A DNA stretch of 64,000 bases, from the IMG/VR virus record IMGVR_UViG_3300022200_000019, positions 148,918-212,917 of that record. One strand, 5' to 3'. Source of the DNA: a virus. How positions within the stretch are numbered: the first letter of the stretch is position 1; each line of letters opens with the position of its first letter. The notes beneath the pieces are model-generated. The model was given only the letters and a program-made list of their open reading frames with translations. It was not told the origin of the DNA and did not search any database. Of the stretch, positions 25,258-41,057 are shown in pieces. Both the position numbers and the translations under genes were made by a program.

Positions 25258-25457
25258 AAGTATCAGAAATCATCAACGAAGGTGTAGGACGTATTACGCC
25301 GCAAAACCAAACACAGGATGTCGGTCCTGATCAAGTTTCTATTGAAGCAAAGAAATTAGGTTTTAAAGTAGATCGGGATGGTCGCCCACCACTTTTAAGT
25401 TCAAACGCAAAGAAAAACACAAATCCTAACACACTATTCAATCTTGGCATAAATTAA
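25254..25457 (+). CDS. tagged 67-residue protein
   Basis: The protein starts MKVSEIINE, almost the same tag as the previous gene (MKVSEIICE), with INE as the protease site. The mature part of about 58 residues has a KKLGFKVDRDGRPPLL segment and an Asn-rich end. No fold is recognised. A duplication of the 5' end of the preceding gene is possible, since the first 24 coding bases are nearly identical. Confidence 0.65.
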   Translation: MKVSEIINEGVGRITPQNQTQDVGPDQVSIEAKKLGFKVDRDGRPPLLSSNAKKNTNPNTLFNLGIN

Positions 25458-25460
25458 TAC

Positions 25461-26863: not shown

Positions 26864-26870
26864 AGGTGGG

Positions 26871-27935
26871 ATGTTCGAACCGTTACGGTGGAGTGGGAGC
26901 ATTCGGGACTTTCCTTATTTTAACGAGTATCCGTGGCTTGAACGTTATAAAACTAAAAACTATTATGTTGGTGCAAGTGCCGCTTGGGATTTTTTTCAAG
27001 ATCTACCCATTGGGTTTGACGCATATATCTTTATCCATCATGTAGAGTTATGCGATCCTAAATGGCTCAAACAACAACAAAAAAGAGTCAATACGCCGTT
27101 TTATGTTCTGTTGTCGGGAAATGACTATAACATTAATATTCCAAATACTACTTTTATTCCATATACACATTGGCACTATGATTTACAAAAAATAGTTGAC
27201 TGGTGGGGTATACAAAAAACACCCGACCATAAAAAATATAAATTTAGTGCAGTTAATAATAGAATTACACAAGCAAAAGTTTGGATTACCACTAAGTTAT
27301 TAATTTCTAGTAGAAATGAATCATTAATAATTAATAATCCAAATTGGATTGAAAGTAAGAATATACATAACTGGGAGCATTGTGGAAATCCTATTCTAGA
27401 CGAGTTGACCGATATTTTTTTACAAGAGTTCATCGACTTAGAACTCAAAGACGAGTTTGATAAGGATAAAAATTTTCAAAGGTATAATTCTAATCCATGG
27501 CAGCCATTATATACAGACACCTCTATACATTTTACAAACGGTAGCCATCATTATAGTTTTATGATGGATGACTATTTTCCATACACGTTTCCCGGACCGC
27601 ATATTGATGAAAAAACATTTAAATGCTTAGTAGCAGGTACTGCATTTATACCAGTTGCGCAATTTGAAATTTATAAATCGTTGGAAAATTTTGGATTACA
27701 GTTTGATTATGGTTTTAACACTGAATGGGATAACGACCCTGGTAACTTGTCAAGATTTGAAAACATTATAAAATTAATTGATTTGCTAAATGATTACTCA
27801 AAAGAAGAACTGTACAGCAAAACAAAAGACATCTCAATTTATAATCAACAATACATATTTGATGGCAAATTCTATAAAAATTGCGAATTACACAATGAAG
27901 AATGCATTGAACAGTTGCATCAACTAATAGCATAA
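26871..27935 (+). CDS. glycosyltransferase-like unknown protein
   Basis: The protein (about 354 residues) has a C-terminal segment HIDEKTFKCLVAGTAFIPV followed by FGLQFDYGFNTEWD. This resembles CFTEKTMRVLQLPRPWLLFG and WGFDVFDDWIDHSYD in the protein at 42580. That shared pattern, E-K-T-hydrophobic-Pro then Gly-Phe-Asp-x-Phe/Tyr, recalls phage and bacterial fucosyltransferase-like domains, but I cannot confirm it. I chose the ATG at 26871 after AAAGGTGGG. An ATG at 26847 and a TTG at 26841 are alternatives that overlap the previous gene. Confidence 0.55.
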   Translation: MFEPLRWSGSIRDFPYFNEYPWLERYKTKNYYVGASAAWDFFQDLPIGFDAYIFIHHVELCDPKWLKQQQKRVNTPFYVLLSGNDYNINIPNTTFIPYTHWHYDLQKIVDWWGIQKTPDHKKYKFSAVNNRITQAKVWITTKLLISSRNESLIINNPNWIESKNIHNWEHCGNPILDELTDIFLQEFIDLELKDEFDKDKNFQRYNSNPWQPLYTDTSIHFTNGSHHYSFMMDDYFPYTFPGPHIDEKTFKCLVAGTAFIPVAQFEIYKSLENFGLQFDYGFNTEWDNDPGNLSRFENIIKLIDLLNDYSKEELYSKTKDISIYNQQYIFDGKFYKNCELHNEECIEQLHQLIA

Positions 27936-27938
27936 ATA
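27931..27938 (+). promoter_or_regulatory. late promoter CATAAATA close to start
   Basis: CATAAATA directly follows the previous coding region and lies 7 nt before the ATG at 27946. Confidence 0.7.
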
Positions 27939-27945
27939 CGTCTAT

Positions 27946-30174
27946 ATGAACTTAAATGACATCCTCAACGAAAAAATTAAGAAAGTACATGGTAAGTGGG
28001 CCCTGGTAAGCAAAAGCGATCCGGATAAAGTCTTACAATATTATCATGGCAAAGACCATCCTAGCAAAGAATGGGAAAAGAAAGTTGAGCGTCGTGTTCA
28101 TGCATTCTCAGAAGCAGAAAGTTTAGACAAAACCATTGATAGAATGCGTAACTTAGATATCGATGATATCGAACACCTGAAGCGTTATTCAAACCCACAA
28201 TTAAAAGATTGGTTAAAACGCTTAACAGCAGCAAATAAAAACAATATTGGTTCAGCACTTAATACATTAGACACTATGGGTCCTATTGCTAAACCATTTG
28301 CTAAGTCATTTGTACAAAAGCAATTTCCAGGCATCGACGATACAGAGTTTGACCAAGCCTGGAAGTTCTGGCAAGAAACTGATCCAGCAACTCGTTCAGC
28401 AGTTACTAAAGGTGACTTGACTACGCTTGATCCAAGAGACGAACATGGCTTTGTTAAAGAAGCCAATAATGACATAGTAGCGAACAGTATCAATGAATAC
28501 AATACCGACGGCATTGATCCAGGAAACGATGAACTATTTGTGCCTATGGGTCTGCTCAACCGTTTTGAAGATAATGGGTGGTATGCATTTGACGGCGGTC
28601 GAGATCAAGCGGTGTTAGCCAAACGCAACATACCTTATGTGCTGAAAATTGTAGGTCAAGGATCGCACAACAGAATTGACGCAGTTCGCCAGTATGTTGA
28701 TTTCTTTCGTCGCAATCAACATAATCCACATTTTCCCAAAGTGGGTAGTGATAAAACACTAACCTGGGAAGGCAAAAAATACTATGCTTACGCTCAAGAA
28801 AAACTTATAGATTTACCGGGTGATGCGGTGATGGATTATCTCGAAGATACTATGCAATCATTTGGTCACAGCGGAAAACAGCCTAACTTTGACAAAATAC
28901 CCCAGGGGCTGTCAGCAAAGCAAGTTAAAGGTTTAATGAATGCTATTAGTGAGTTGCTTGCATCGGGCATAGGCAATAATCGTGCGTTTGATTTGGGTAA
29001 TGTCCTGAATATTATGAAACGAAAAAATGGACAGCTAGTGATTGTTGATCCATTTAGTTCTCACGATCGTTTAGATCCTAGCGAAGAATACGTGAGCGAA
29101 ACAGATGATTATGATGCTTGGTTAGAAAAAGCCAAAAAACGTGCAGAAAAGCAAGCAGCAAAAAAACGTGCTGAATTACAGCAAGTAATGAAGGGCATCG
29201 AAACCGATCCAGAAAAACTAGCATTACAAGGTACAATTCAAGCGGCACGCGGTGAGCTTAGTAAGCGTAAGCGTGAAGCATTGGCTAAGATGGAGCAAAT
29301 GAAACAAATTTACTCTGAGTTTTCTGATGAAGAATTAGATAAAATTATCGGGCGTTATTCAAAAGGTCCAGGTGCTGGTTCAGATTTTGTGGAATGGTTA
29401 AAGTCCATTAAACAAGAACGCGAAGACGAGCGGTCTGGTGTTCAACAACGACAGGATGTATTTAGAAGCGTGGCAGGACCCATGCAAGGCAAACAAAGCC
29501 AAAAGGCTGCACCTGCACAAGGTAAACCATGGACACAGTTAGGTATGACTCGTGATGAATTTAGAAAAATTCTAAACAACCCACAACATCCTCGTCATAG
29601 AGAAATTAAACAATTACACGATCAGTATAAACAAGTCGACGAAGATTTAACTCGCAGAGATTTCTTAAAAGGTGTCGCAGGCGGGGCAATGGCGCTAGGG
29701 GCTATGAAAGCTGCTAAAGCATTAGGATTAAAAGATCCTACCAGATCCACAGACACTGATGATCAGTACCAGAGATTCACAGGCGCAAAACCTGCACCAT
29801 TGTATGCTAAACCAGACCTGGATCCAGAACGTAAATGGAACCGTGTGGGTGTCAATCAACCAGGCGGTCAGTTCAGCATTGTGCTACACAAAGACTTTGA
29901 TTTATATTTGTATTTTGTAACACGTGATTTTTCCACATCGCCCTATGCCTACATAGAATTACAGGATGGTGAAAAATATAAATTCCGCATTCGTACTCTG
30001 AAAAACGATACATTTACCATCGAAGATCCCAGAATGGCAGCAACACTATTGAATTATCAAGGTAAATTCAATCTGTATGTTGGCGATGACGTGTACACAT
30101 TTAACATCATGCCCAGTCAGGAATCCAAAGTATTATATCGCTGGTGGAAAGAAGGCACACATCAGGGATTGTGA
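27946..30174 (+). CDS. tagged kinase-like protein with internal Tat motif, putative packaged effector
   Basis: This 742-residue protein starts MNLNDILNE, a capsid-targeting-like tag (LNE). Residues 10-50 hold the phage-typical HGKWALVSK block. Residues about 200-372 look like a protein-kinase/aminoglycoside-phosphotransferase fold: VLKIVG with K234, YAQEKLIDL as the hinge, RAFDLGNVLNIM (D349, N355) as the catalytic loop, and LVIVDPF (D368) as the DFG equivalent. The loop is one residue longer than the usual DxxxxN. A charged coiled-coil region follows. At 568-576, LTRRDFLKG plus an Ala/Gly-rich stretch is a twin-arginine signal, preceded by VDE (564-566), a possible prohead-protease site. The last 150 residues are beta-rich. 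Confidence 0.65.
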   Translation: MNLNDILNEKIKKVHGKWALVSKSDPDKVLQYYHGKDHPSKEWEKKVERRVHAFSEAESLDKTIDRMRNLDIDDIEHLKRYSNPQLKDWLKRLTAANKNNIGSALNTLDTMGPIAKPFAKSFVQKQFPGIDDTEFDQAWKFWQETDPATRSAVTKGDLTTLDPRDEHGFVKEANNDIVANSINEYNTDGIDPGNDELFVPMGLLNRFEDNGWYAFDGGRDQAVLAKRNIPYVLKIVGQGSHNRIDAVRQYVDFFRRNQHNPHFPKVGSDKTLTWEGKKYYAYAQEKLIDLPGDAVMDYLEDTMQSFGHSGKQPNFDKIPQGLSAKQVKGLMNAISELLASGIGNNRAFDLGNVLNIMKRKNGQLVIVDPFSSHDRLDPSEEYVSETDDYDAWLEKAKKRAEKQAAKKRAELQQVMKGIETDPEKLALQGTIQAARGELSKRKREALAKMEQMKQIYSEFSDEELDKIIGRYSKGPGAGSDFVEWLKSIKQEREDERSGVQQRQDVFRSVAGPMQGKQSQKAAPAQGKPWTQLGMTRDEFRKILNNPQHPRHREIKQLHDQYKQVDEDLTRRDFLKGVAGGAMALGAMKAAKALGLKDPTRSTDTDDQYQRFTGAKPAPLYAKPDLDPERKWNRVGVNQPGGQFSIVLHKDFDLYLYFVTRDFSTSPYAYIELQDGEKYKFRIRTLKNDTFTIEDPRMAATLLNYQGKFNLYVGDDVYTFNIMPSQESKVLYRWWKEGTHQGL

Positions 30175-30494
30175 CCGTATAGGTCTTGTGTGGACAACAT
30201 CTCCCATTTGTCCCATTCAGGACGCCAGTGATATTTGTATTCTCTGACTTTGCGAACCACCGTGGTAGACACATAATCACGGCAACCGCCAAACGGATCG
30301 CAATGTCTGGCTGATTTATCCTCTATGTGATATTGTTCCACAGGAGATTCATAATCTTTGGCACGATACTGATCCTGGCTGGTCGCCCATTCCCAGATTG
30401 CAGTGCTTGCCAGACTGATGCCCAGCGAATCCAGAAATGCTGGAGCCGCTGGACTATACAGACTAATTGTGGCGATCAGAATCAGCTGGCGCAT
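30162..30494 (-). CDS. secreted small protein, envelope cassette
   Basis: The 110-residue protein has an N-terminal hydrophobic segment with possible signal-peptide cleavage after MRQLILIATISLYSPAAPA. The mature part has HCDPFGGCRDY, two cysteines that could form a disulfide in the periplasm, and several Trp/Tyr residues near the end. It is the last gene of a three-gene minus-strand unit, coupled by TAATG to the lipoprotein gene. Its 3' end overlaps the end of the kinase-like gene by 13 nt. I recognise no family. Confidence 0.65.
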   Translation of the reverse strand: MRQLILIATISLYSPAAPAFLDSLGISLASTAIWEWATSQDQYRAKDYESPVEQYHIEDKSARHCDPFGGCRDYVSTTVVRKVREYKYHWRPEWDKWEMLSTQDLYGHNP

Positions 30495-31063
30495 TAACGA
30501 CGTTCTAGATCTTCAAATGCACGTGCAGCCGCAGATTCATCTGTGACTGTGATGGATTCAGCCACAGCAACTTTTTCGGAAATGCCAAGAGACAGGTTAA
30601 TGTATGCACGATACATGGTTCCTTCCTTGAACACAGCCTTGTTGACTACACGATAACCGTTCACAGGAACATCTTTAAATTCGCTGACAGACACAAACTC
30701 GTTGGTCTGTGTAGAGTCGCTGGTTACGCTCTTGCGATTATCTGCGGTATACTGCTTAAATTTACCTGAAGTAAGAGCAGATACTTTGTCGCCCAGTTTG
30801 ATCTTAGCACTATGCAATGCTTTCTCCATTGCAAATTCCATGTCATCTGCGAGACCAGTTGCAGCAGCATAGATAATGCTACCATCTTCAACACCTGGAT
30901 CCAGATACCATACAGGTACAATTTCCTTCTTTTCAAGTGGCACAACACCAACAACGTCAACACCGCCGACCTTGTCTTCTGCTTCCATTCGTGCTACACT
31001 GCTGTTAGACGCACAACCGCCCACAAAGGCAGCAGCCATAGCAATTACGATTACCTTTTTCAT
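30494..31063 (-). CDS. LPP20-like lipoprotein
   Basis: The 189-residue protein begins MKKVIVIAMAAAFVGGC, a signal peptide with lipobox VGGC, so it should be lipid-anchored. The mature part contains VWYLDPGVEDGSIIYAAATG, followed by a helix with many Ala (FAMEKALHSAKIKLGDKV) and a beta segment, the pattern of the LPP20 lipoprotein family of Gram-negative envelopes. The function of that family is unclear. In a phage it could alter the host outer membrane, for example to block superinfection. It lies in a minus-strand operon with an upstream consensus sigma70 promoter, opposite to all surrounding late genes. Confidence 0.75.
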   Translation of the reverse strand: MKKVIVIAMAAAFVGGCASNSSVARMEAEDKVGGVDVVGVVPLEKKEIVPVWYLDPGVEDGSIIYAAATGLADDMEFAMEKALHSAKIKLGDKVSALTSGKFKQYTADNRKSVTSDSTQTNEFVSVSEFKDVPVNGYRVVNKAVFKEGTMYRAYINLSLGISEKVAVAESITVTDESAAARAFEDLERR

Positions 31064-31212
31064 TTCTTTGTAACTCCAGTAGAGTCAATAATTTGAGACT
31101 TAACAGAATTATAATCTGCTTCGAGTCCCGCCATTGTGCCCTTGAATGGGTTAATACCTGTAGCACAAACAGCAAGAGCAACGGCAAGTACTACAATAAT
31201 CAAAGTTTTCAT
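31060..31212 (-). CDS. 50-residue exported or membrane-anchored peptide
   Basis: This short frame was found by hand on the minus strand: MKTLIIVVLAVALAVCATG, then a 30-residue tail ending STGVTKK. The hydrophobic N-terminus is a signal or anchor. The Cys after LAV resembles a lipobox but has Val at the -1 position, so lipidation is doubtful. The stop overlaps the next gene start (ATGA). It is the first gene after the sigma70 promoter at 31250-31277. Confidence 0.6.
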   Translation of the reverse strand: MKTLIIVVLAVALAVCATGINPFKGTMAGLEADYNSVKSQIIDSTGVTKK

Positions 31213-31249
31213 AATTAAAATTCATTCCTATATTGCGAAATGTATCTAT

Positions 31250-31277
31250 ATTATACACAATGCTAATCTAATGTCAA
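31250..31277 (-). promoter_or_regulatory. consensus sigma70 promoter, minus strand
   Basis: Read on the minus strand: TTGACA (31277-31272), a 16-nt spacer and TATAAT (31255-31250), both perfect hexamers. It drives the three-gene envelope cassette and is back-to-back with the late promoter at 31293. Confidence 0.85.
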
Positions 31278-31292
31278 CCATTAATTTTGTTG

Positions 31293-31300
31293 CATAAATA
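31293..31300 (+). promoter_or_regulatory. late promoter CATAAATA close to start
   Basis: CATAAATA lies 4 nt before the ATG at 31305. Confidence 0.7.
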
Positions 31301-31304
31301 CAAC

Positions 31305-31574
31305 ATGCGTGCCACAGAATTTTTAACAGAATCTTATCCAACAGTAACAATGAATTACCAGCAGTTTCTCGTTGAAGAACCTGTAAAAAGTTCATGGATT
31401 GAAGATTTATCTTATGTTGAATTCAAAGACGGATCTGGTGGTGTAAACATGACCACAAAGGGTGGCCGCACTTATTTTATCGAAGACGTACCATACGAAG
31501 TCTACGAACGCTGGTTAAAAGCTCTTAGCAAAGGCAAATTCTGGTGGTCAGACATCAAATACTTCTATACTTAA
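31305..31574 (+). CDS. tagged KTSC-domain protein
   Basis: The ATG at 31305 gives MRATEFLTE, a capsid-targeting-like tag. An earlier in-frame ATG at 31287 lies upstream of the late promoter and is unlikely. The 89-residue product has a second tag-like stretch, MNYQQFLVE, at residues 16-24. It then has a KTSC-like domain: SSWIEDLSYVEF, GRTYFIEDVPYEVYERWLKA and SKGKFWWSDIK. KTSC domains are small and of unknown role, sometimes fused to lysyl-tRNA synthetase-related or nucleic-acid proteins. The tag suggests packaging in the head. Confidence 0.7.
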   Translation: MRATEFLTESYPTVTMNYQQFLVEEPVKSSWIEDLSYVEFKDGSGGVNMTTKGGRTYFIEDVPYEVYERWLKALSKGKFWWSDIKYFYT

Positions 31575-31580
31575 TACCCG

Positions 31581-31588
31581 CATAAATA
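31581..31588 (+). promoter_or_regulatory. late promoter CATAAATA close to start
   Basis: CATAAATA lies 4 nt before the ATG at 31593 and drives the run of four paralogs. Confidence 0.7.
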
Positions 31589-31592
31589 GTAG

Positions 31593-32918
31593 ATGCGAGC
31601 AAGAGATTTCATTCTACTAGAATACAAGCACGACGTTACGATGAGAAACTATGGTGAAAAGTTTCGCGATCGCATGCTTGGCGATATGACCATTACTGCT
31701 AGTACTCAGAGTAAACTAGAAGATGCTAAAGCTAAAGGCATAGGTCCGTCCAGTGATACGTTCACTCCAGGCTATCTAAGAAGAATCGAACAATCAGATC
31801 CAACTCCAAATCGAGAATACACACAGTGGATGGTGCGTAGTTATATTAACCGTGTTGTTAATTATTACGAAGACGTATTATCTACACTTGCGGGCTTTGC
31901 TGGTATGTTTAACGAGCTTAAAATACATCGTCGTTTACCAGAAAAATATCGCGACATTAATCAAATCAAAACTCGAGAAATCTTTCGTGATGCTTATCGA
32001 GCAGTTGCTGATCGATATGAAGAATTCCGCGACGAACAGCAAGAACAGAAACCACTAAGCAAAGGCCACGCACAAGAAGTCTACAACGGACCAGAAGTGA
32101 GAATCATCCATCCTGTAGACCAAGCGGCTGCTTGTTACTATGGGCAAGGTACACAGTGGTGTACTGCTAGTACACGCAGCCAAAATTACTTTAATGATTA
32201 CAACAACGAAGGTCCGTTATTAATACTAATTCCCAAGAAGCCAGCGCATGAAGGCGAGAAATATCAATTACATGCTGCTAGCGAACAAGTTATGGACGAG
32301 CATGACAGTTCTGTTCCAATGGGTCACGTAGTAAGTAGATTCCCCAATACCAATCTTGGAGAGATTCTAATTAAATTTGATCCTGAATGGAAAGACTTTG
32401 CAGAACTAATGCATCCAGATGATCTTAAACGAATTGTTCGTTTGTATAACCAAAGACTTGTAAACTTTAACAAATGGATCTTGGATCAATACACCCAAAA
32501 CAGCTCAATGTCAAAACAGCAACAACAAGAACTAAAAGCTGCTGCGGAACGTGCTGGTTGGCCAAACGCTGGTACATTCACATACGATCAGTTTGCTGAA
32601 TATCTACGTACTGGATCTATCCATTCTAAGGAACGTTTTATAAGAACACTAGTTGATCTATCTTATGATTTATTAATCCCGCATTTAAGAAGCAATGACG
32701 CTCTTGAGCAGTTTGACAAGACTCCTAGAGATGTTTTAAATACTCAAGGAATGGTAGGATTAAGCAAAAGAAACTTTGTTCAAACATGGACAGTATTATT
32801 AAATGACTGGAGAATTCGGTTTAGTGATGAAGATCCAGATTGGGCAACATATGTTGGGCCTACTAACAACAGCATGTATAATAACGCAGTAGGGTATACC
32901 GATTGGAGTAGCCGATGA
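31593..32918 (+). CDS. tagged WCTA-core paralog 1, putative packaged protein
   Basis: The 441-residue protein starts MRARDFILLE (tag, LLE), then YKHDVTMRNYGEKF. The conserved core at residues 181-192 is CYYGQGTQWCTA (C181, W189, C190). NYFNDY, LLILIPKKP and GEKYQLH follow. The same core recurs in the next three genes. The N-terminal part includes DPTPNREYTQWMVRSYINR, also shared. I do not know the domain. Two Cys, the Trp and a following Asn/Phe/Tyr pattern suggest an active or metal site. The C-terminal 200 residues differ between paralogs, so each may carry a different function. Confidence 0.7.
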   Translation: MRARDFILLEYKHDVTMRNYGEKFRDRMLGDMTITASTQSKLEDAKAKGIGPSSDTFTPGYLRRIEQSDPTPNREYTQWMVRSYINRVVNYYEDVLSTLAGFAGMFNELKIHRRLPEKYRDINQIKTREIFRDAYRAVADRYEEFRDEQQEQKPLSKGHAQEVYNGPEVRIIHPVDQAAACYYGQGTQWCTASTRSQNYFNDYNNEGPLLILIPKKPAHEGEKYQLHAASEQVMDEHDSSVPMGHVVSRFPNTNLGEILIKFDPEWKDFAELMHPDDLKRIVRLYNQRLVNFNKWILDQYTQNSSMSKQQQQELKAAAERAGWPNAGTFTYDQFAEYLRTGSIHSKERFIRTLVDLSYDLLIPHLRSNDALEQFDKTPRDVLNTQGMVGLSKRNFVQTWTVLLNDWRIRFSDEDPDWATYVGPTNNSMYNNAVGYTDWSSR

Positions 32919-34249
32919 GAGCTCGTGAATTTATCGTAGAATATAAACGCGACATTACCATGAAAAACTGGTACGACAAGATCTTACGGCAACAAATGGT
33001 CGATAAAACCTACACCACACACGCTCAAAATGAAATCAGAGATTGGCTGGAAAAACGTGCTCGAGGAGAACTAACTCAACTTGAACAAGAGTTGTTAGAT
33101 CAATCAGTCGAAATGATAGTAAGACAATTTGAATCTGCAGATCCAAGTCCAAACAAACAGTATGTACAATGGATGTTGCGTATTTGGACCAATCCAAATG
33201 GTGTTGGCAGAATCGAAGATGTTACGTCCACAACAGCAGAAATGCTACACAAGTACCACGAACTAAAACAACGCAATCGTTTGCCTATTGACATTCGCGA
33301 CATTAACCAGGTTAAGGATATGCGAACACTGGAAAAGTTGCACGATGATGTGGATCGTTTATATGCATTACTAGATAAAGATAAAATAGCAGCAATGCCA
33401 AAAGGCTCTGCTCGTGAAGTATATAACGGACCAGATTTTAGACTTATCGTTCCAGAAGATGAAGCAGCCGCTTGTTATTATGGCCAAGGAACACGCTGGT
33501 GTACGGCAGCAACCAAGGGTCATAATATGTTTGATCACTATAGTAAGGCTGGCCCTATCTACATTCTCATTCCTAAAAAGCCAGAGTATGAAGGTGAAAA
33601 ATATCAATTACACGGCGCATCACGCCAATCAATGGATGAACGAGATCAGCCATACTATATTGGTAATTTACTTGGCAGATTCCCTGAGCTAAAAGAAATA
33701 TTATTTTCTACTGATGATTTTTATAGTTGGGTTGAGATAATGCCGGATGCTTTTGTTGAGGATGGCGTTGCTACCTGGAATGCGTATGCTGCGAAACATT
33801 TTAAAGAATGGGGTCTAACACAAGTATTGACTGGTTGGACGCGAACTGCTAAGAATCGCGGCGAGATTGTGGATGTACAAAAAACCTGGGAAAAGGTTAG
33901 AAAAGTATTGCTTGACTTGCTAGCAAATAGCGAAGTTTCAGTAGCAGACTTTTATGATGCTGCTACACAGACGCACATCAAAGGCGATACTGGTGCTACA
34001 GATGCTGAAAATGAGTTTGCTCGAATACTTTCATATGCGTGGAAGTATAACCTGATAGAAGCGTTAAAAGCCGGTTATCTGGGTGTGAATGCTAAGGTTA
34101 GTTTAGAACATCCTGAATGGGATATTACAGTTCGTGTAATAGATTCTGAAGCGAACGCCTGGAAAGATTCCACTGCCGAGTGGAGCAATGACGAGGGCTG
34201 GGAATTCTCCATTAATGATCCCGAAGATACTCGCTACAATGAGGACTAA
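32915..34249 (+). CDS. tagged WCTA-core paralog 2, putative packaged protein
   Basis: The 444-residue protein starts MRAREFIVE (tag, IVE), then YKRDITMKNWYDKI. It has the shared DPSPNKQYVQWMLRIW segment and the core CYYGQGTRWCTAAT. MFDHYSKAGPIYILIPKKP and GEKYQLHG follow. It overlaps paralog 1 by 4 nt. The C-terminal part (residues about 260-444) is helical, then beta-rich, with Trp/Asp/Glu near the end, and is unlike paralog 1. It is probably a recent duplicate that diverged at the C-terminus. Confidence 0.7.
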   Translation: MRAREFIVEYKRDITMKNWYDKILRQQMVDKTYTTHAQNEIRDWLEKRARGELTQLEQELLDQSVEMIVRQFESADPSPNKQYVQWMLRIWTNPNGVGRIEDVTSTTAEMLHKYHELKQRNRLPIDIRDINQVKDMRTLEKLHDDVDRLYALLDKDKIAAMPKGSAREVYNGPDFRLIVPEDEAAACYYGQGTRWCTAATKGHNMFDHYSKAGPIYILIPKKPEYEGEKYQLHGASRQSMDERDQPYYIGNLLGRFPELKEILFSTDDFYSWVEIMPDAFVEDGVATWNAYAAKHFKEWGLTQVLTGWTRTAKNRGEIVDVQKTWEKVRKVLLDLLANSEVSVADFYDAATQTHIKGDTGATDAENEFARILSYAWKYNLIEALKAGYLGVNAKVSLEHPEWDITVRVIDSEANAWKDSTAEWSNDEGWEFSINDPEDTRYNED

Positions 34250-34251
34250 AT

Positions 34252-35568
34252 GTGAGAGCCAAAGAGTTTTTATTAGAATATAACAGAGACATCACCAAAA
34301 AGAACTATGGTGACAAGATTGTTCTGCGCTGGGGCGTGGGAGCTGTTAGCAGTGGATTAAGCATTCGCCGTGTACACGACAAGATTCTTGCTGGCGAACC
34401 ATTGGATGCCAACGAACAAAATGTTTATGATGAAGCAGTTGCTAACATTATTAACAAAGCAGAAATTGCTGACCCAACTCCAAACAAACAATATGTACAG
34501 TGGCTTGTTCGTGCGTGGATCAATAAACTGCTAAGACTTGCTGAAGATATTCTTTCATCAGGCAGTGAGTTTGTTAAAATGTGGCACGAGTTAAAAACTC
34601 ACCGTATGCTACCGCCAAATTACACAGACATTAACAGAATTAAAACACCGAGCGATTGGAATCAGGCCTGGGTGGATATTCGAGCAGCATACGAAAACTT
34701 CAAACCCAAGAAGCCAATGCCCAAAGGCAAGGCACGTGAACTGTTAAACAATGCGGAAGTAAGAATCGTTCGCCCAGAAAATGAAGCAGCGGCTTGCTAT
34801 TACGGACAAGGCACACAGTGGTGTACGGCTGCTACAGAAACACGCAACTTGTTTGATCATTATCACAAAGATGGCGATCTAAGTATCTTTATTCCTAAGA
34901 ATCCACGGTACGAAGGTGAAAAATATCAACTGTGGGTCAATAACGACACTGGTGGATATCAGTTAATGAACGAACAAGACGATCCACTTGAATACGGCCT
35001 AGAAGAACTAACAGACAGATTTAATACATTAACTTATGAGATTTTAGAAAAACTACATCCAGCACTAATGAAACATCCTGAATTTAACACTGAAGAATTT
35101 GAGTCAGTTAAACGGCAAATTGCTGTTAACCTATTCAAAAATGGATACTTCAAATTAGCATATAGCGATCTAATTAATATGCTTGATGATTCATTTGACG
35201 AATACGACAAAGATTCCATTAATTATATGAAAGAAATGTTTATGGAAATGGAAGCTGAAGTGTTGCGAGCTATTAACAATGTTGGATACGATGAACTCGC
35301 ATTTAATGATCCTGGTGTAACATTCCCTGAGTTACCCAATGCTGTATTTAGATGGCTTGAATACATGACTGATGACACCAACATGTGGGGCGATTGGGCT
35401 GACGACGAATATATGGTAGGCTTTATCAGCAACATTGAAGCCTGGTTTAACAGACAAACAAATTGGGACAAGCGTAATCAGAATCAAACTCTGATACCGT
35501 ACTACAGCATCAAACAAGACGAAAAAACTGGAAAGTGGGAAGTAGAGTACGAAGGCCCGTGGACATGA
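34252..35568 (+). CDS. tagged WCTA-core paralog 3, putative packaged protein
   Basis: The 438-residue protein uses a GTG start that yields MRAKEFLLE (tag, LLE), then YNRDITKKNYGDKI. The DPTPNKQYVQWLVRAW segment and core CYYGQGTQWCTAAT are shared, with NLFDHYHKDG and FIPKNPRYEGEKYQL. It starts 2 nt after paralog 2. The C-terminal half is acidic with several Met/Glu helices. The GTG start could lower its translation compared with its siblings. Confidence 0.7.
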   Translation: MRAKEFLLEYNRDITKKNYGDKIVLRWGVGAVSSGLSIRRVHDKILAGEPLDANEQNVYDEAVANIINKAEIADPTPNKQYVQWLVRAWINKLLRLAEDILSSGSEFVKMWHELKTHRMLPPNYTDINRIKTPSDWNQAWVDIRAAYENFKPKKPMPKGKARELLNNAEVRIVRPENEAAACYYGQGTQWCTAATETRNLFDHYHKDGDLSIFIPKNPRYEGEKYQLWVNNDTGGYQLMNEQDDPLEYGLEELTDRFNTLTYEILEKLHPALMKHPEFNTEEFESVKRQIAVNLFKNGYFKLAYSDLINMLDDSFDEYDKDSINYMKEMFMEMEAEVLRAINNVGYDELAFNDPGVTFPELPNAVFRWLEYMTDDTNMWGDWADDEYMVGFISNIEAWFNRQTNWDKRNQNQTLIPYYSIKQDEKTGKWEVEYEGPWT

Positions 35569-36968
35569 GAGCAAACGATTTAATTTTTGAATACAAGCGT
35601 GACGTAACCGTAAAGAATTATACTGACAGACTGATTGATCGTATGATCAGCGATGGCAGTGTCGAACGTATGACGTTTGGCGGCAATGGATGGGGTTACA
35701 CCACAGATGATATGTTTGATATGGTTCGCGGCATTCAGTGGCAGAATCAACCGCCGTTGACTCCAGAAAAAGTAGAAGCAGCCAAGGAAATATTTGCGAG
35801 AGGTGCTATTACACAAATTGAGCAAGCAGATCCTACCAGTAAAAAAGCCTACACAGAATGGTTGGTAATGGCATATATCAACAGTATATTTGTGCGTTGG
35901 GAAGACATATTCTCAACTGGAACTGATTTCTTAGCAATGTATAACGACCTAAAGCAACGCAACTTATTTAATAAAGTCGATACTCTTAAAGCAGTATCAA
36001 ACATTAAACAAATCAACAATCGCGAAAGATTTAGATGGGCATATACTACAATTTCAAACGCACACGATTTTTATCTCGGTCAAACCACAGACATTGATCG
36101 CGGCGATGCTGAAGAAATCCACAACGGACCAGAAGTTCGTGTACTAAAAGTAAACGATCAAAAAGCAGCGTGTTATTATGGACGCGGCACAGAATGGTGT
36201 ACAGCAGCAACACGTTCTCGCAATATGTTTGATCACTATAACCGTACTGGAAACATATACATATTCATTCCTAAAAAGCCACAGCACGACGGTGAAAAAT
36301 ATCAGTTCTGGGCAGGCGACGATGGGCGCAACGTTGATATTCAACTAATGGACGAACACGACGAGCCAGTAGATTTTGAAACCTGGGACAATCGTTTTCC
36401 AGGATTGGGCATCAAATACTTGTATGATCTTGAACCTAAGGTATTGAGTCAGTTTGTTATGTTTAACCGAAAGCGATTTGATTATATCATAGCCGAAGTT
36501 GTTGAACTTTTACAAAACAACTGGAAATGGGATGTCGTTGCTGACTGGGAGCATGACGATGATTATTATTGGCAATGGTTGCGTGACGAAGGTTACATAG
36601 ATGACGAAGGCGACTTTGATGATGATAAAATGGAAAAAGACGGCATAAACTATCTAGAGTTTAACGACGATTTGCGCCGAGGACTAAACGACGTGTTTGA
36701 CGCTTTTGAAGAACTTACACCGTCAGAACTCAATAATTTTTATAGTGATGACAATGGTGGACCATTGGACTTCTACCGTATGATTGATACCTTAGGTGAC
36801 TGGATAGAAGATCAAGCCGGCAGTCACTATGAAAGTTTATTCAAAGATGCCGGTAATTTCATTGCCAATAATATTGGCAGTTACTCAGATAAGGAAGGTA
36901 ACTTTAAGGTAGATCATGTTGCTAATATTCGCGGTACACCTTATCTAGCGCATCCAGCTAGACGATAA
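35565..36968 (+). CDS. tagged WCTA-core paralog 4, putative packaged protein
   Basis: The ATG at 35565 gives MRANDLIFE (tag, IFE) then YKRDVTVKNYTDRL. An upstream start in the same frame would place ten extra residues before the tag and is rejected. The 467-residue product shares DPTSKKAYTEWLVMAYINS and the core CYYGRGTEWCTAAT, with MFDHYNRTGNIYIFIPKKP. It has an insertion near residue 30 (GGNGWGYTTDDMF) and a very acidic C-terminal region (DDDYYWQWLRDEGYIDDEGD). It overlaps paralog 3 by 4 nt. Confidence 0.7.
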   Translation: MRANDLIFEYKRDVTVKNYTDRLIDRMISDGSVERMTFGGNGWGYTTDDMFDMVRGIQWQNQPPLTPEKVEAAKEIFARGAITQIEQADPTSKKAYTEWLVMAYINSIFVRWEDIFSTGTDFLAMYNDLKQRNLFNKVDTLKAVSNIKQINNRERFRWAYTTISNAHDFYLGQTTDIDRGDAEEIHNGPEVRVLKVNDQKAACYYGRGTEWCTAATRSRNMFDHYNRTGNIYIFIPKKPQHDGEKYQFWAGDDGRNVDIQLMDEHDEPVDFETWDNRFPGLGIKYLYDLEPKVLSQFVMFNRKRFDYIIAEVVELLQNNWKWDVVADWEHDDDYYWQWLRDEGYIDDEGDFDDDKMEKDGINYLEFNDDLRRGLNDVFDAFEELTPSELNNFYSDDNGGPLDFYRMIDTLGDWIEDQAGSHYESLFKDAGNFIANNIGSYSDKEGNFKVDHVANIRGTPYLAHPARR

Positions 36969-36976
36969 ACTAAATA
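36969..36976 (+). promoter_or_regulatory. late promoter ACTAAATA
   Basis: ACTAAATA lies 22 nt before the ATG at 36999, leaving room for a short leader with AAAGAGA as a ribosome binding site. Confidence 0.5.
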
Positions 36977-36998
36977 CTATATCAAAGAGAAAAATATC

Positions 36999-37577
36999 AT
37001 GAACTTATCCGAAGAACTCAGAAAATATGCCAATATCTTAAATGAAGAACGCACAGACGAATACTTTGATTATGGCGACGATGCCGATACCAGCAATGAA
37101 CCAGCAGGTATGCCGTTTTATAAACTGCCTGCAAAAAGTTCAGCAGTAAAAATCACAAATAAAGCGCACCAAGCCGGACTAAACACAGTTGAGTTTCAAG
37201 GACAATATCTGAGTGTTTCGCCTAACCAAGCCGATCGGCTGGAAGAACTAATGCGTGCCATGCGCATGCAGTTTACGCCGGTAACGGGTGTTCCTGATTG
37301 GGGTGCAGATGATTCACATCTAAGTCGCAAAGAACGTGCTCGTGGCATGCCATATAAATTTAGCGAAAACAAATCGGTAATTCGTAAAAGATTTCCCAAA
37401 TTAGAAAAAGCAATTATTCAAGATCAAGATCCAGAGTTGGCATCTCTGTATGCCATAAAGGTAATCGGAGGCAGATGGCCCGAAGCAGAACCAGTGATTG
37501 CCAAAGATTCAGAGTCGGCATCTCTGTATGCCCGATATATACTCAAAGGTCCTTGGCCCGAAGCAGGGATCAAATGA
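36999..37577 (+). CDS. tagged protein with C-terminal 30-residue repeats
   Basis: The 192-residue protein starts MNLSEELRKYANILNE, a longer tag-like leader ending LNE. The middle includes LEELMRAMRMQFTPVTGVP and a basic patch. The last 50 residues hold two copies of a repeat (QDPELASLYAIKVIGGRWPEAEPVI and the related DSESASLYARYILKGPWPEAG), a unit I have seen in several phage and giant-virus proteins without a known role. The leader resembles SDELRKLAGLATED near the end of the protein at 38977. It is coupled by ATGA to the next gene. Confidence 0.65.
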   Translation: MNLSEELRKYANILNEERTDEYFDYGDDADTSNEPAGMPFYKLPAKSSAVKITNKAHQAGLNTVEFQGQYLSVSPNQADRLEELMRAMRMQFTPVTGVPDWGADDSHLSRKERARGMPYKFSENKSVIRKRFPKLEKAIIQDQDPELASLYAIKVIGGRWPEAEPVIAKDSESASLYARYILKGPWPEAGIK

Positions 37578-37987
37578 GAGCAAGAGAATTCACATCTGAA
37601 GCAGATATGACACGTAGAGATTTTCTCAAACGTGCAGCAGCAACACTGGCAGCACCAGCAGTAGCAAAGGCTGGTCCTCCGGTTAGTGACGAAACTACCC
37701 AAGCAGTTGATCTAGCACAAGATCCAAACTGGATGCCACTATACAAAGACGGCGAACCAGTTACTGCTCCTCCATATGCTCAAGAGTTATATGGCAAGGG
37801 TTATCCAAAAGATACAGATTATCGTCCCGTTGATCCAATTGATTCGTTTGAAAAAGACCCAGACGTTCAGAGATTCTATGATCTCAAAGCAAAACGTTGT
37901 TTGGCAAACCGTGGCACACCAGTAAAGGATGCGCAAGGTAACATAGATTGTACGCAAGTACGTGGTAAAGCATCGCAAACATGGTAG
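37574..37987 (+). CDS. tagged protein with twin-arginine signal
   Basis: The 137-residue protein starts MRAREFTSE, a degenerate tag (TSE instead of LxE). TRRDFLKRAAATLAAPAVAKA follows directly: a twin-arginine motif, hydrophobic stretch and AKA cleavage site. If the tag is removed in the prohead, the mature protein begins with a Tat signal. The remaining part (PNWMPLYKDGEPVTAPPYAQELYGKGYP) has two Cys near the end. This suggests a packaged protein that could be exported to the host periplasm after injection, or during synthesis. The fold is unknown. Confidence 0.65.
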   Translation: MRAREFTSEADMTRRDFLKRAAATLAAPAVAKAGPPVSDETTQAVDLAQDPNWMPLYKDGEPVTAPPYAQELYGKGYPKDTDYRPVDPIDSFEKDPDVQRFYDLKAKRCLANRGTPVKDAQGNIDCTQVRGKASQTW

Positions 37988-37993
37988 AGGTTG

Positions 37994-38233
37994 ATGGGAA
38001 AGATATTAAAATTTCCAACTGAAAAAACTTTTACTTGTATGCTGCCAGACGACTGGGCAGACCCAGAAAACCCTACGCAATACGAAATCGCTAACACAAT
38101 GCGCACATTACGTCAGATGATGACAGAGTGCGAAAAAGAATATCACAAAACACAATCCCCTGCGTTAACTGTACAAATCAATAAAATTAAATCCTGTATA
38201 CAGTTAATGTACAGTTATTATCGCTCAGACTAA
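37994..38233 (+). CDS. small helical protein, unknown
   Basis: The 79-residue protein starts at the ATG at 37994, with AGAGG just upstream. A TTG 3 nt earlier is less likely. The N-terminal MGKILKFPTEKTFTCML is beta-like, and the rest is a helical pair rich in Met, Gln and Lys. No tag or membrane segment is seen. Unknown function. Confidence 0.6.
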   Translation: MGKILKFPTEKTFTCMLPDDWADPENPTQYEIANTMRTLRQMMTECEKEYHKTQSPALTVQINKIKSCIQLMYSYYRSD

Positions 38234-38237
38234 CCTG

Positions 38238-38245
38238 TATAAATA
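38238..38245 (+). promoter_or_regulatory. T4-type late promoter TATAAATA
   Basis: A perfect TATAAATA motif 28 nt before the GTG at 38274. In this case a proper ribosome binding site (AGGAG) lies between. Confidence 0.75.
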
Positions 38246-38273
38246 TTTTTAACATGTAGCACAGGAGTCTACC

Positions 38274-38513
38274 GTGAGCGATGATATCTTTGACGACATT
38301 GAACTCACAGGCATTGAACGCTTTAATAGCCACTTGAACGAGGATATCAAAGACCGTGCCTATCGCTATGTTACACATAGTCCAGAGTACCACAGAGTAC
38401 CTCTTAGCGAACTCAGAAGAATACGCAGCAAAGCAAAAAAACTAAAAAGAAGCTATAAAAAACAACAACGCAAGCAATCTCAAGACATTTCCAAACGCTA
38501 CGGCGGTCGTTGA
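38274..38513 (+). CDS. small basic protein, unknown
   Basis: The 79-residue protein has a GTG start with AGGAG 9 nt upstream. The first 20 residues are acidic (SDDIFDDIE). The last 35 are strongly basic and helical (RRIRSKAKKLKRSYKKQQRKQ), typical of nucleic-acid binding or core proteins. It is preceded by a perfect late promoter. Confidence 0.6.
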   Translation: MSDDIFDDIELTGIERFNSHLNEDIKDRAYRYVTHSPEYHRVPLSELRRIRSKAKKLKRSYKKQQRKQSQDISKRYGGR

Positions 38514-38520
38514 TTACTAG

Positions 38521-38528
38521 CATAAATA
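38521..38528 (+). promoter_or_regulatory. late promoter CATAAATA close to start
   Basis: CATAAATA lies 4 nt before the ATG at 38533. Confidence 0.7.
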
Positions 38529-38532
38529 CTGT

Positions 38533-38853
38533 ATGAAAGATACAGTATTCGTAAAACTCTGTGTGGATTTACACTGTGACTGGCAGGGGTTGCCACCAGA
38601 TTACCGTATCTATGTGGACAATGAATTGTTTGCTGAACGCACTTATCGTTGGGAAAAACCTGTATACCTGACAGAAATTCTTCAGATTAATGCAGTGCCT
38701 GACACAGAATATCTGGTCACACTGGACGATTTTGCACCACAGATTGCAAATTTCAAGATGTCAAACCACAGAGTTGAATATTGTGACTTGCCTGTGGAAT
38801 TTAACAAGTGTAAAGACAAAAAATTTAGGTTTAAAGTTAAAAATGAAAGTTAA
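38533..38853 (+). CDS. small beta-sandwich-like late protein
   Basis: The 106-residue protein has alternating strands (VFVKLCVDLHCDW, YRIYVDNELFAERTYRW, VYLTEILQINAVPDTEYLVTL) that suggest a beta-sandwich of the carbohydrate-binding-module kind. Similar phage proteins are usually structural. The last 11 nt overlap the next tagged gene. A loosely similar protein is at 18370. Confidence 0.6.
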   Translation: MKDTVFVKLCVDLHCDWQGLPPDYRIYVDNELFAERTYRWEKPVYLTEILQINAVPDTEYLVTLDDFAPQIANFKMSNHRVEYCDLPVEFNKCKDKKFRFKVKNES

Positions 38854-38980
38854 TGAGATAATTTCAGAAATGACCAGTGCTGGTGCTGTTGCCGCAGTAG
38901 CGCAACCATTAGGCGGCACAATTAGTCGTAACCAGGGCGTATATACCAAACCAAAAAAGAAAAAGAAGGGTAAAAAATGA
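38843..38980 (+). CDS. tagged 45-residue peptide with Lys-rich tail
   Basis: The frame MKVNEIISE, then MTSAGAVAAVAQPLGG and YTKPKKKKKGKK, is a complete 45-residue gene in a larger open frame. ISE is the protease site. The Ala-rich middle and lysine-rich end resemble small T4-like core or internal peptides bound to packaged DNA. The ATG overlaps the upstream gene, and its stop overlaps the next ATG (ATGA). Confidence 0.65.
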   Translation: MKVNEIISEMTSAGAVAAVAQPLGGTISRNQGVYTKPKKKKKGKK

Positions 38981-40449
38981 ACGATCCACAAATGAATAAT
39001 ATTCTAGCACGACTCAATTCTGTTGGCACTAAACCAGCAAGTGCATCCAATAACCGTAGTTCTAGCGCAGGCGACCCGGCCATGCACGAAATACTAAGTC
39101 GTTTTCATGCTGTGGGTAGTAAAACAACAGTCAACGAAGGACTAGGCGCAGAGCAACGCAAGGTGGGTCAACTAGGTCCAACTGACAAACCCAGCAAACG
39201 CAAAGATCATGCGTTCAAGGGTAAACTAGTTGGTGAAGATGATACATCTCGATTAGCCCAGCTAGAAAAAATGCGCAATCCAGAAGCCGAAGCAAACTTT
39301 GCTAAAACCGGTACTTATGGTCGCGAACAATCAGCAAAGATGCATTCGGGATTTTTTTCAATGCCAGATGAGTTTGAAGATCCACACAAAATGATCAAAG
39401 GCGCGATGAACATGGGCATGACAGCCGCTGATGTTGATGCAGCGTTGCCCAAAGGATACAGCATACCACCAGCGAAAGCACAAAAAACGTCAGGGTTTAG
39501 AACACCGTTTGATCAACCAGCAGGTGCTACAAACACATCAACTGGATTTACACCAGGATCTAATAAACTATTCCAAGACGAATTCAGTGAAGATTATAAC
39601 GTAGATGAATATGATCAAGAGGGCGAAATGGCTAAAGGGCAGCTAGACCGTGCTGCTGACGCTGCGCAAGAATTACACGATATTTTAGATGATTCGGATA
39701 ATTTACCAGAATGGGTACAATCAAAGATTACCAAAGCATTGGATTACTTAGATACCGCCAGAGATTATATTAAGAGCGAATTCAGCGAATCAGTCGAAGG
39801 TGCAGAAGATTCCTTAACCATGGGAATCCCGTTGTTTATTCGTATGCTAGAGTACGCTCGAGAAGAAGCAAAAACTGACGCAGACCTACATCATGTTACC
39901 AAAAAAATGTTAGACATGGGTGGCAATGTTACCATGGACGATTATGAAGAAATTATGTCCAGTGTTAGCGGCGAAGAATCAGAAATGGGTGAAGCTGTTG
40001 GTGATAAGCTCACTGATCTGGAATATGGTAGTTCTACTGCTACTCGAACTCCAACTGTAGGCGGCTATCACCAAAGACGTGATTTAGAAACAGGATCATA
40101 TACTGATTACACAGATCGTGGTCCGATCAGCACACAAACAACTTATGATAAATCAGGACAAATGACTAGCCAACACGCACAGGCACGTGTAGGTGATCAA
40201 TCAATGGCACGCTCTCGCTTTTATCCTAAGCGTAACGAAAGCGATGAATTACGCAAACTTGCTGGTCTTGCTACCGAAGACTATGTTGGCGGCCGAGAAG
40301 CACCAGCAGACTTAGTTAAAACGCTAAGTAAAAGTTATAGAGACTTTGTTAAAGAAGTTGAAGCTACTAGTGCTGCTAAACCAGATCGTGAACTGCGCAG
40401 TAAAACAGAAAAGCCACGTAAATTTGGCAATATCTTAGGTGAAGAATAA
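38977..40449 (+). CDS. probable head/core structural protein
   Basis: The 490-residue protein lacks the short N-terminal tag but contains the repeated motif DPQMNNILARLNSVG and DPAMHEILSRFHAVG near the start. A later helical part (GQLDRAADAAQELHDILDDSDNLPEWVQSKITKALDYLDTARDYI) is a segment I recall from marine T4-like head-associated proteins. It ends with SDELRKLAGLATED and KFGNILGEE, which contain possible prohead-protease sites. It is mostly disordered and charged. A scaffold/core or internal head role is likely. Confidence 0.6.
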   Translation: MNDPQMNNILARLNSVGTKPASASNNRSSSAGDPAMHEILSRFHAVGSKTTVNEGLGAEQRKVGQLGPTDKPSKRKDHAFKGKLVGEDDTSRLAQLEKMRNPEAEANFAKTGTYGREQSAKMHSGFFSMPDEFEDPHKMIKGAMNMGMTAADVDAALPKGYSIPPAKAQKTSGFRTPFDQPAGATNTSTGFTPGSNKLFQDEFSEDYNVDEYDQEGEMAKGQLDRAADAAQELHDILDDSDNLPEWVQSKITKALDYLDTARDYIKSEFSESVEGAEDSLTMGIPLFIRMLEYAREEAKTDADLHHVTKKMLDMGGNVTMDDYEEIMSSVSGEESEMGEAVGDKLTDLEYGSSTATRTPTVGGYHQRRDLETGSYTDYTDRGPISTQTTYDKSGQMTSQHAQARVGDQSMARSRFYPKRNESDELRKLAGLATEDYVGGREAPADLVKTLSKSYRDFVKEVEATSAAKPDRELRSKTEKPRKFGNILGEE

Positions 40450-41057
40450 TGAACTTTTACGAATTATTTGAAGCAAGCAAAGAAAAAGAAGAAAAATCAG
40501 AAAAAGCCGGTGAATATCAGGATGTGGCCATTGCTGATCCCAAGGCAGCAATTGCCCTAAAACAGGCACGTGCAAAATACACCTATGCACAGAGCGATTT
40601 AGAAGCATTTGTTAAAATGATGCAGGATCAAGAAGAAAAAGATCAGCAAGAGATTGACAACCTGGAAGCAGACACTGAACGTCAGGAAGAAGAAATCCAG
40701 CAGGCTGAAAAAGAAATACGAGAATTAGAAAAACGTGAAGCACAGGATACTGCCAAAAATAATGCAAAAATCAACAAACTCAACAAAGAAATTGATTTGC
40801 AAAACAGGCTGATTCAGACGCTCAACACCAAAGAACAGGGATACGAAAAAGCATTGGCCCAATATGCTGACAGAATTGAAAAGATCAATGCAGATCTAAC
40901 AGACCTGGAAGATCGCATGGGTGGTATCAAAGGGTTCCGTGCTCGTCCAAAATCCAAGGCACCACCATTACCAAAACCATCAGACTTTGCAGTGGGTCAG
41001 GCTGCTTTCCAACGTACACAAAGAGATGGAGGAATTCCAGATTTAGATACAGAATAA
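40449..41057 (+). CDS. tagged coiled-coil protein
   Basis: The 202-residue protein starts MNFYELFE (tag, LFE; compare MNLYDLFE at 21853). Residues about 45-160 form a long coiled coil with heptads (DNLEADTERQEEEIQQAEKEI and further). A Pro-rich linker (KAPPLPKPSD) and a short tail end the protein. It is likely an internal head or core protein. It ends the late block and is followed by a terminator. Confidence 0.7.
   Translation: MNFYELFEASKEKEEKSEKAGEYQDVAIADPKAAIALKQARAKYTYAQSDLEAFVKMMQDQEEKDQQEIDNLEADTERQEEEIQQAEKEIRELEKREAQDTAKNNAKINKLNKEIDLQNRLIQTLNTKEQGYEKALAQYADRIEKINADLTDLEDRMGGIKGFRARPKSKAPPLPKPSDFAVGQAAFQRTQRDGGIPDLDTE

What the first reader, a model, noticed from the sequence alone, without database searches (positions are those of the whole stretch)
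31593..36968. Four tandem paralogs sharing a CYYGxGTxWCTA core
Four adjacent genes of 438-467 residues share the tag, a Y-K/N-x-D-[IV]-T segment, a DPxxxxxYxxW segment and the core CYYG[QR]GT[QRE]WCTA, then [FIM]FDHY-like and FIPKxPxxxGEKYQ, while the C-terminal halves diverge. This looks like recent tandem amplification of a packaged protein with a variable effector part. I cannot name the domain.
Basis: seen in the sequence. Interest (0 to 1): 0.72.

Follow-up and report, generated by a model that had tools for sequence, protein, structure and literature searches.

The report
Phage head-packaged paralogs with WCTA domain
Four neighbouring genes of a large T4-like phage look like proteins that are packed into the virus head and shot into the bacterium with the DNA; they share a targeting tag and an unnamed domain built around one invariant cysteine, found in hundreds of other phages and apparently in some giant viruses, while their rear halves differ completely.

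Summary
Four translationally coupled genes (441, 444, 438, 467 aa; window 31593-36968) share about 250 residues at 36-46% identity. Their C-terminal halves are at background (11-16%). The shared part is an N-terminal T4-type capsid-targeting/cleavage tag, a helical domain and a confident ~95-residue fold (AF2 pLDDT 96) carrying YGxGTxWCTA. Pfam, NCBIfam and the PDB do not know the domain; two PHROGs of unknown function match it. At least 573 stretches in viral contigs encode it, against four in 84,980 prokaryote species genomes. The relative in phage PA5oct is annotated from mass spectrometry as a virion protein. The host record has a Gp23 capsid and a T4-type terminase. Nearby genes are enriched for the same tag. 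Relatives carry other C-termini: GH19, a cell-wall hydrolase, DUF4116 or TPR repeats. So "packaged module with a variable rear" is well supported; injection and effector activity are inferred. "Recent" amplification is wrong: the expansion is specific to this lineage but old. Across 67 diverse cores only the WCTA cysteine is invariant, which argues against a two-Cys metal site. Foldseek also finds the domain in giant-virus proteins (47-52% identity) and, more weakly, in PcfJ-like proteins. Its activity is unknown.

The parts
31581..31588 (+). late-promoter-like box (GCATAAATA) just upstream of the array
   Evidence: GCATAAATA occurs 9 times on the coding strand and 0 times on the other in the 212.9-kb record; same box before 27946, 31305 and 38533. 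Resemblance to the T4 late box TATAAATA is from general knowledge.
31593..32918 (+). paralog 1, 441 aa: tag MRARDFILLE|Y, helical domain, WCTA core, private C-terminus
32915..34249 (+). paralog 2, 444 aa: tag MRAREFIVE|Y, helical domain, WCTA core, private C-terminus
   Evidence: (AF2)
34252..35568 (+). paralog 3, 438 aa (GTG start): tag MRAKEFLLE|Y; C-terminus 48% identical to that of a gene in L010
35565..36968 (+). paralog 4, 467 aa: tag MRANDLIFE|Y; C-terminus of the type shared with several relatives
31593..31622 (+). capsid-targeting/cleavage tag of paralog 1 (10 aa, P3 Leu, P1 Glu10)
   Evidence: [LIV]-x-E|Y in 60 of 60 aligned relatives (partly biased by the search pattern)
32915..32941 (+). 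tag of paralog 2 (9 aa)
34252..34278 (+). tag of paralog 3 (9 aa)
35565..35591 (+). tag of paralog 4 (9 aa)
32058..32351 (+). WCTA core of paralog 1; invariant Cys190 at 32160-32162
33398..33691 (+). WCTA core of paralog 2; invariant Cys196 at 33500-33502; core-only AF2 model pLDDT 96.2
34720..35031 (+). WCTA core of paralog 3; invariant Cys191 at 34822-34824
36096..36407 (+). WCTA core of paralog 4; invariant Cys212 at 36198-36200
21853..41057 (+). island of tag-bearing genes around the array (21853, about 23742, 24433, 25254, 27946, 31305, the four paralogs, 36999, 37574, 40449)
   Evidence: N-terminal tag scan of all ORFs of the record: most tagged ORFs fall here

Best explanation
The four genes encode precursors of internal head proteins of a PA5oct-like, T4-type large myophage. 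They are expressed late as one coupled operon. Each precursor is drawn into the prohead core by its 9-10-residue N-terminal tag and cut by a gp21-type prohead protease after the conserved [LI]-x-E (before Tyr). The mature protein is then ejected into the host with the DNA. The shared helical + WCTA module is the constant part. Its WCTA fold, built around one invariant cysteine with a near-invariant Lys and Gln, is probably an active or ligand-binding site. The divergent C-terminal ~180 residues would set the target or activity, so an array of paralogs carries several related but different effectors. Shown here: architecture, conservation, divergence, tag enrichment around the genes, and record-level mass-spectrometry annotation of one homolog. 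Inferred: processing, injection, and any effector or enzymatic action.
For: (1) Tag: MRAREFIVE|Y-type N-terminus with P3 Leu/Ile/Val and P1 Glu in 60/60 aligned relatives. In a set gathered on the core alone, 34 of 46 have [LIVFM]xEY and most others a variant, against 4% of 934 other ORFs. T4 capsid-targeting sequences are ~10 residues with processing determined at residues 8 and 10 (PMC9026906). (2) The homolog EST35_0205 of PA5oct carries MKLFEVFTLYE and is annotated 'structural protein, ESI-MS/MS', beside terminase. (3) The record has a Gp23-type capsid protein (PF07068, E 7e-98) and a T4-type terminase. (4) ORFs within 2 kb of WCTA genes bear the tag more often than ORFs 4 kb or more away (67/333 vs 25/397, Fisher p 2e-8). 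(5) The N-terminal domain and core travel together (180 of 204 core proteins), while C-termini vary: GH19, cell-wall hydrolase, DUF4116, TPR, others. (6) Window C-termini 11-16% identical against 36-46% for the rest. (7) Almost virus-only: at least 573 viral stretches vs 4 in 84,980 prokaryote species genomes. (8) Cys invariant in 67 diverse cores; Lys68 66/67, Gln70 65/67.
Against: No prohead protease was found in the record; the record starts at the capsid gene, so its usual neighbours may lie off it, and the S77 search had no positive control. No peptide evidence for this phage itself, and the PA5oct evidence is a record note. No homolog has a tested function. The His that a classical Cys-His site would need is replaced in 10 of 67 cores, two window paralogs included. 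No solved structure resembles the fold by Foldseek, so catalysis is only suggested.
Confidence: 0.62

Rival explanations
1. Morphogenetic proteins: the module belongs to the prohead core/scaffold and helps head assembly; the variable C-termini pack against the core and have no role in the host.
For: PA5oct lists the homolog as structural. T4 internal protein IPIII affects head assembly (PMC9026906). Helical domain plus core is the constant part.
Against: C-termini include peptidoglycan hydrolases and protein-interaction repeats. Copy number ranges from 1 to 7 per record. The core occurs without tag or helical domain in bacterial contigs L152 and L153 and in giant-virus proteins.
Confidence: 0.2
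2. IPI-like inhibitors: the proteins are injected but act by binding and blocking host nucleases or other defences, without catalysis; paralogs cover different defences.
For: T-even internal proteins are described as a diverse set of defence proteins that share only the targeting sequence (PMC3012670). The four paralogs have private C-termini.
Against: A strictly invariant Cys plus near-invariant Lys and Gln in an otherwise divergent domain is more than a scaffold usually needs. Some members carry enzymatic domains.
Confidence: 0.25
3. Adaptor head: the WCTA domain is a generic recruiting module joined to different target-reading repeats, in the way F-box domains are joined to ankyrin or FNIP repeats in giant viruses.
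For: The core is joined to DUF4116 repeats (L141, L054), TPR (L153), and, by BFVD names, to ankyrin, FNIP and leucine-rich-repeat proteins.
Against: The window paralogs have no recognised repeats; their C-termini are helical, modelled with medium to low confidence. No host partner is known.
Confidence: 0.12
4. Ordinary cytoplasmic takeover genes in which the N-terminal tag is coincidental.
For: No virion data for this phage.
Against: Tag statistics, gene cluster, late-type box and the MS-annotated homolog.
Confidence: 0.05

Closest known systems
T4 internal head proteins (IPI, IPII, IPIII) and Alt
   Same: about 10-residue N-terminal targeting tag ending in [LI]-x-E, T4-type head genes in the record, tag shared by unrelated cargo genes
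   Different: T-even internal proteins share only the tag; here a helical domain and the WCTA fold are shared too. No ADP-ribosyltransferase domain was found in the four proteins
PA5oct EST35_0205 / Paride_0002 (Wroclawvirus)
   Same: same helical + WCTA arrangement, 30-31% identity over 182 residues, tag MKLFEVFTLYE, annotated as MS-detected structural protein in PA5oct
   Different: single copy next to terminase; unrelated C-terminus
PHROG 28193 and PHROG 17056 (unknown function)
   Same: match the WCTA core of all four proteins (E 3e-8 to 5e-5)
   Different: no function known; only the core region matches
PcfJ (PF14284) of conjugative elements and temperate phages
   Same: Foldseek ranks five PcfJ-like proteins right after the family itself (TM 0.42-0.54); same G-x5-C spacing; a PF14284 gene with a tag-like N-terminus lies between two WCTA genes in L011
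   Different: no window protein scores against PF14284; profile comparison is not above a reversed control; HCV instead of WCTA
Polyvalent proteins (Iyer et al. 2017, PMC5512222)
   Same: virion-borne multidomain proteins with mixed effector domains; long WCTA proteins such as L146 (1427 aa) and L031 (1057 aa) recall them
   Different: the window proteins are short; the paper's text does not mention PcfJ or WCTA

Membership tests
T4-type internal head protein (CTS cargo) | short N-terminal targeting sequence with [LI]-x-E cleavage site | tested here: met
   60/60 relatives in A2; 34/46 strict matches in the core-ascertained set vs 4% background
T4-type internal head protein (CTS cargo) | phage has T4-type head genes | tested here: met
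   Gp23 PF07068 E 7e-98; T4-type terminase
T4-type internal head protein (CTS cargo) | gp21-type prohead protease in the phage | tested here: inconclusive
   none found, but the record begins at the capsid gene and the S77 search had no positive control
T4-type internal head protein (CTS cargo) | present in virions | not testable with these tools
   only the PA5oct homolog's record note 'ESI-MS/MS'
T4-type internal head protein (CTS cargo) | cleaved N-terminus and ejection into the host | not testable with these tools
   needs N-terminal proteomics and a delivery assay
PcfJ (PF14284) | scores above Pfam's gathering threshold | tested here: not met
   no PF14284 hit for the four proteins (E up to 1) or 14 cores (E up to 10); L011:4326-7661 does score (41.9 bits, cut-off 25) but is another protein
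PcfJ (PF14284) | same fold | tested here: inconclusive
   five PcfJ-like proteins rank directly after the family in Foldseek/BFVD, TM 0.42-0.54, prob 0.44-0.93
PcfJ (PF14284) | significant profile-profile similarity | tested here: inconclusive
   hhalign score 18.9 exceeds 100 column shuffles (max 16.8), but the reversed profile scores 21.9
two-cysteine metal-binding domain | at least two conserved ligand cysteines | tested here: not met
   only the WCTA Cys is invariant (67/67); the CYYG Cys is replaced in 13 of 67
T4 Alt-type ADP-ribosyltransferase | ART domain | tested here: not met
   no ART hit in Pfam, PHROGs or NCBIfam for the four proteins
Known anti-phage defence protein | PADLOC model match | tested here: not met
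   only one weak hit at E 0.015, to a candidate system

The most novel reading that the evidence does not exclude
The WCTA domain founds an unrecognised cysteine-centred superfamily used by mobile elements across realms: as the constant head of virion-borne effectors in T4-like jumbo phages, joined to ankyrin or FNIP repeats in giant viruses, and as the PcfJ domain of conjugative elements, with C-terminal parts exchanged to retarget it.
Probability: 0.25. Interest if true: 0.85.

Novelty: new variant of a known kind. Interest (0 to 1): 0.62.

Why it matters
T4-like phages deliver proteins with their DNA, but apart from Alt and IPI little of this cargo is understood. This is a very common cargo family (at least 573 viral stretches) with a confident fold that Pfam, NCBIfam and the PDB do not know. 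It is present once in Paride, which can replicate on dormant Pseudomonas aeruginosa (PMC10761892), so it can be deleted and tested in a cultured phage. Its one invariant cysteine gives a precise mutation to make. The occurrence of nearly the same domain in giant-virus proteins, if the assignments hold, would be a rare case of an effector domain shared between phages and viruses of eukaryotes.

Tried and rejected
Single-protein search of viral contigs found nothing; alignment queries were needed. Pfam, NCBIfam, PADLOC and PDB sequence searches gave no useful hit. Foldseek of the full-length model against the PDB gave only noise (best E 1.6). First hhalign runs used a global flag by mistake and were repeated locally; the PcfJ link is not significant by sequence, because a reversed control scored higher. 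A WCTA profile hit on PcfJ L179 (12.7-13.8 bits) is matched by a decoy at 13-15 bits. Searches for prohead protease families S77 and S78 were negative or uncontrolled; the guess that window 62615-63328 is the protease found no relative. Metal binding was rejected (second Cys not conserved). A classical Cys-His catalytic pair was rejected as a claim (His72 of the core replaced in 10 of 67). Recent amplification was rejected. Two further PcfJ scans gave nothing or only more PcfJ loci.
Full report
The observation. Four adjacent + strand genes at 31593-36968 encode proteins of 441, 444, 438 and 467 residues with a 4-nt overlap, a 2-nt gap and a 4-nt overlap between them. The CYYGxGT DNA pattern occurs exactly four times in the 212.9-kb virus record and not on the other strand or in the backwards control; core profiles find only these four. 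Up to the end of the core the four are 36-46% identical in pairs, beyond it 11-16%, which is background.

Anatomy. AlphaFold2 on a 60-sequence alignment gives confident helices for residues 12-160, then a small alpha/beta domain, a helical stretch of medium confidence and a low-confidence end. The core alone is predicted at pLDDT 96, pTM 0.87, as strand-strand-helix-helix-strand-strand-strand-helix. In 67 diverse cores only the Cys of WCTA is invariant; Pro19, Gly29, Thr36, Tyr48, Gly52, Lys68 and Gln70 are nearly so. The other Cys (CYYG) is replaced in 13 of 67, so a two-Cys metal site is unlikely. Divergent copies lose the Trp but keep the Cys, for example L043, L028, L030 and L012.

What it is by sequence. 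Pfam, NCBIfam, PADLOC and PDB sequences have nothing useful; PHROGs 28193 and 17056, of unknown function, match the core. tblastn in cultured phages finds PA5oct-like Pseudomonas jumbo phages including Paride, Caulobacter phage CcrBL9 and Salicola phage SCTP-2. In genomes of 84,980 prokaryote species a somewhat stricter pattern finds four. The family is therefore almost entirely viral.

Packaging. The N-terminus is a T4-like capsid-targeting sequence. In 60 of 60 aligned relatives Glu precedes Tyr at residue 8-15 (9 in 50 of them), with Leu, Ile or Val two before the Glu. That set was partly gathered with a pattern covering this site, so I repeated the count on loci gathered with the core only: 34 of 46 have [LIVFM]xEY near the start, against 4% of 934 other ORFs. 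For T4, ten residues suffice for targeting and residues 8 and 10 govern processing (PMC9026906). The PA5oct homolog, annotated from mass spectrometry as structural protein, begins MKLFEVFTLYE. The record has a Gp23-type capsid gene and a T4-type terminase. It starts at the capsid gene, so the portal and protease genes may lie beyond its ends; no protease was found. GCATAAATA boxes, nine on the coding strand and none opposite, stand before 27946, 31305, 31593 and 38533, with none inside the array; they resemble T4 late boxes (general knowledge), which would put these genes with the late head genes.

Neighbourhood. Tag-bearing ORFs of this record cluster at 21853-41057 of the window. Across related loci, ORFs within 2 kb of a WCTA gene bear the tag in 67 of 333 cases, ORFs 4 kb or more away in 25 of 397 (Fisher p 2e-8). 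The array is therefore part of a cargo island, as T4 keeps unrelated cargo under one tag.

Variation. The N-terminal domain and core occur together in 180 of 204 core proteins. C-termini differ: most are about 170-200 residues, but others carry a GH19 domain (L107:14420-16687, E 5e-13), a cell-wall hydrolase (L077:9392-11941, E 1e-18), DUF4116 repeats (L141, L054), TPR (L153) or up to 1700 further residues. Paralogs 1 and 2 have C-termini without a match in the collected set; paralog 3 matches a gene in L010; paralog 4 matches L010, L119 and several more distant relatives. Copy number per record is one in 20 of 32 records searched, up to four (this record), six (that of L054) and seven (SCTP-2); many records are fragments. 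A tree puts the four window proteins and one from L010 in one clade (98/92) with long end branches, and paralog 4 joined to L010 (67% identity): an expansion in this lineage, but older than its split from L010.

Wider kinship. Foldseek of the core against predicted viral structures gives the known relatives, together with proteins assigned to giant viruses of eukaryotes: two from Marseillevirus LCMAC202 (one named ankyrin repeat protein), one from LCMAC201 and an Indivirus FNIP-repeat fragment, 47-52% identical, with rmsd 0.6-0.7 A for three of the four. To my knowledge these are metagenome assemblies and could be misassigned; I could not inspect their contigs. Close behind the family come five PcfJ-like proteins (TM 0.42-0.54, prob 0.44-0.93). 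PcfJ has the same G-x5-C spacing, and a genuine PF14284 protein with a tag-like start lies between two WCTA genes in L011. By sequence profile the link is not significant: the score beats 100 shuffles but not a reversed control. I treat it as a lead and do not file the domain under PcfJ.

Mechanism. Best supported: late-expressed, tag-targeted, protease-trimmed internal head proteins that enter the host with the DNA, with a constant Cys-centred domain and a variable C-terminal part that sets target or activity. Packaging is likely (about 0.8), an effector role less certain (about 0.6), and an active-site role for the Cys a guess (about 0.35). Rivals are a head-assembly role, non-catalytic inhibitors like T4 IPI, and an adaptor module.

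Verdict. Ordinary in principle (T4-type cargo), new in content: a very common, unnamed cargo domain with a confident predicted fold that has no solved relative, and exchangeable C-termini.

Noticed in passing
window 37574-37984 (+); L110:2252-2644; L119:1175-1573; L147:457-1143: A capsid-targeting tag is followed at once by a twin-arginine signal (MRAREFTSE|ADMTRRDFLKRAAATLAAPAVAKA). In L147 it precedes an M48-type metallopeptidase (E 7e-12). This suggests cargo that is packaged, injected and then exported by the host's Tat system.
   Followed up: partly
window 27946-30174 (+): A 742-aa tag-bearing protein has weak kinase-like PHROG hits and, at residues 567-586, an internal twin-arginine signal (QVDE|DLTRRDFLKGVAGGAMALG) that passes the NCBIfam TIGR01409 cut-off; cleavage at VDE would expose it.
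   Followed up: partly
L146:9377-13657: A 1427-aa protein with two helical + WCTA modules and DUF4116-like repeats (by eye also a kinase-like end), modules preceded by a tag-like 'INEVLRIAGVKxLNE' or 'VILNEG' stretch: possibly a polyprotein cut by the prohead protease.
   Followed up: partly
BFVD A0A481Z016, A0A481YZT2, A0A481YW50, A0A1V0SEJ3: Proteins assigned to Marseillevirus LCMAC201/202 and Indivirus contain the WCTA core at 47-52% identity, in proteins named for ankyrin or FNIP repeats in two cases.
   Followed up: no
L131:9126-9575, L080:7782-9413, L106:1870-3231, L107:10813-11931: Tag-bearing genes near WCTA genes look, by eye, ADP-ribosyltransferase-like ('LYH.T' starts) or kinase-like; L080 has a weak KptA hit.
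   Followed up: partly
L181 (Myroides plasmid pMA84474): A PcfJ gene stands next to a gene annotated as AcrIIA9-family Cas9 inhibitor; in other elements PcfJ stands next to a PcfK-like gene.
   Followed up: no
L043:8268-8579, L030:8247-8552, L028:13018-13326, L012:8268-8576, L122:13919-14215: A divergent sister group of the core with [FY]CTG in place of WCTA keeps the Cys and often lies next to a WCTA gene.
   Followed up: partly
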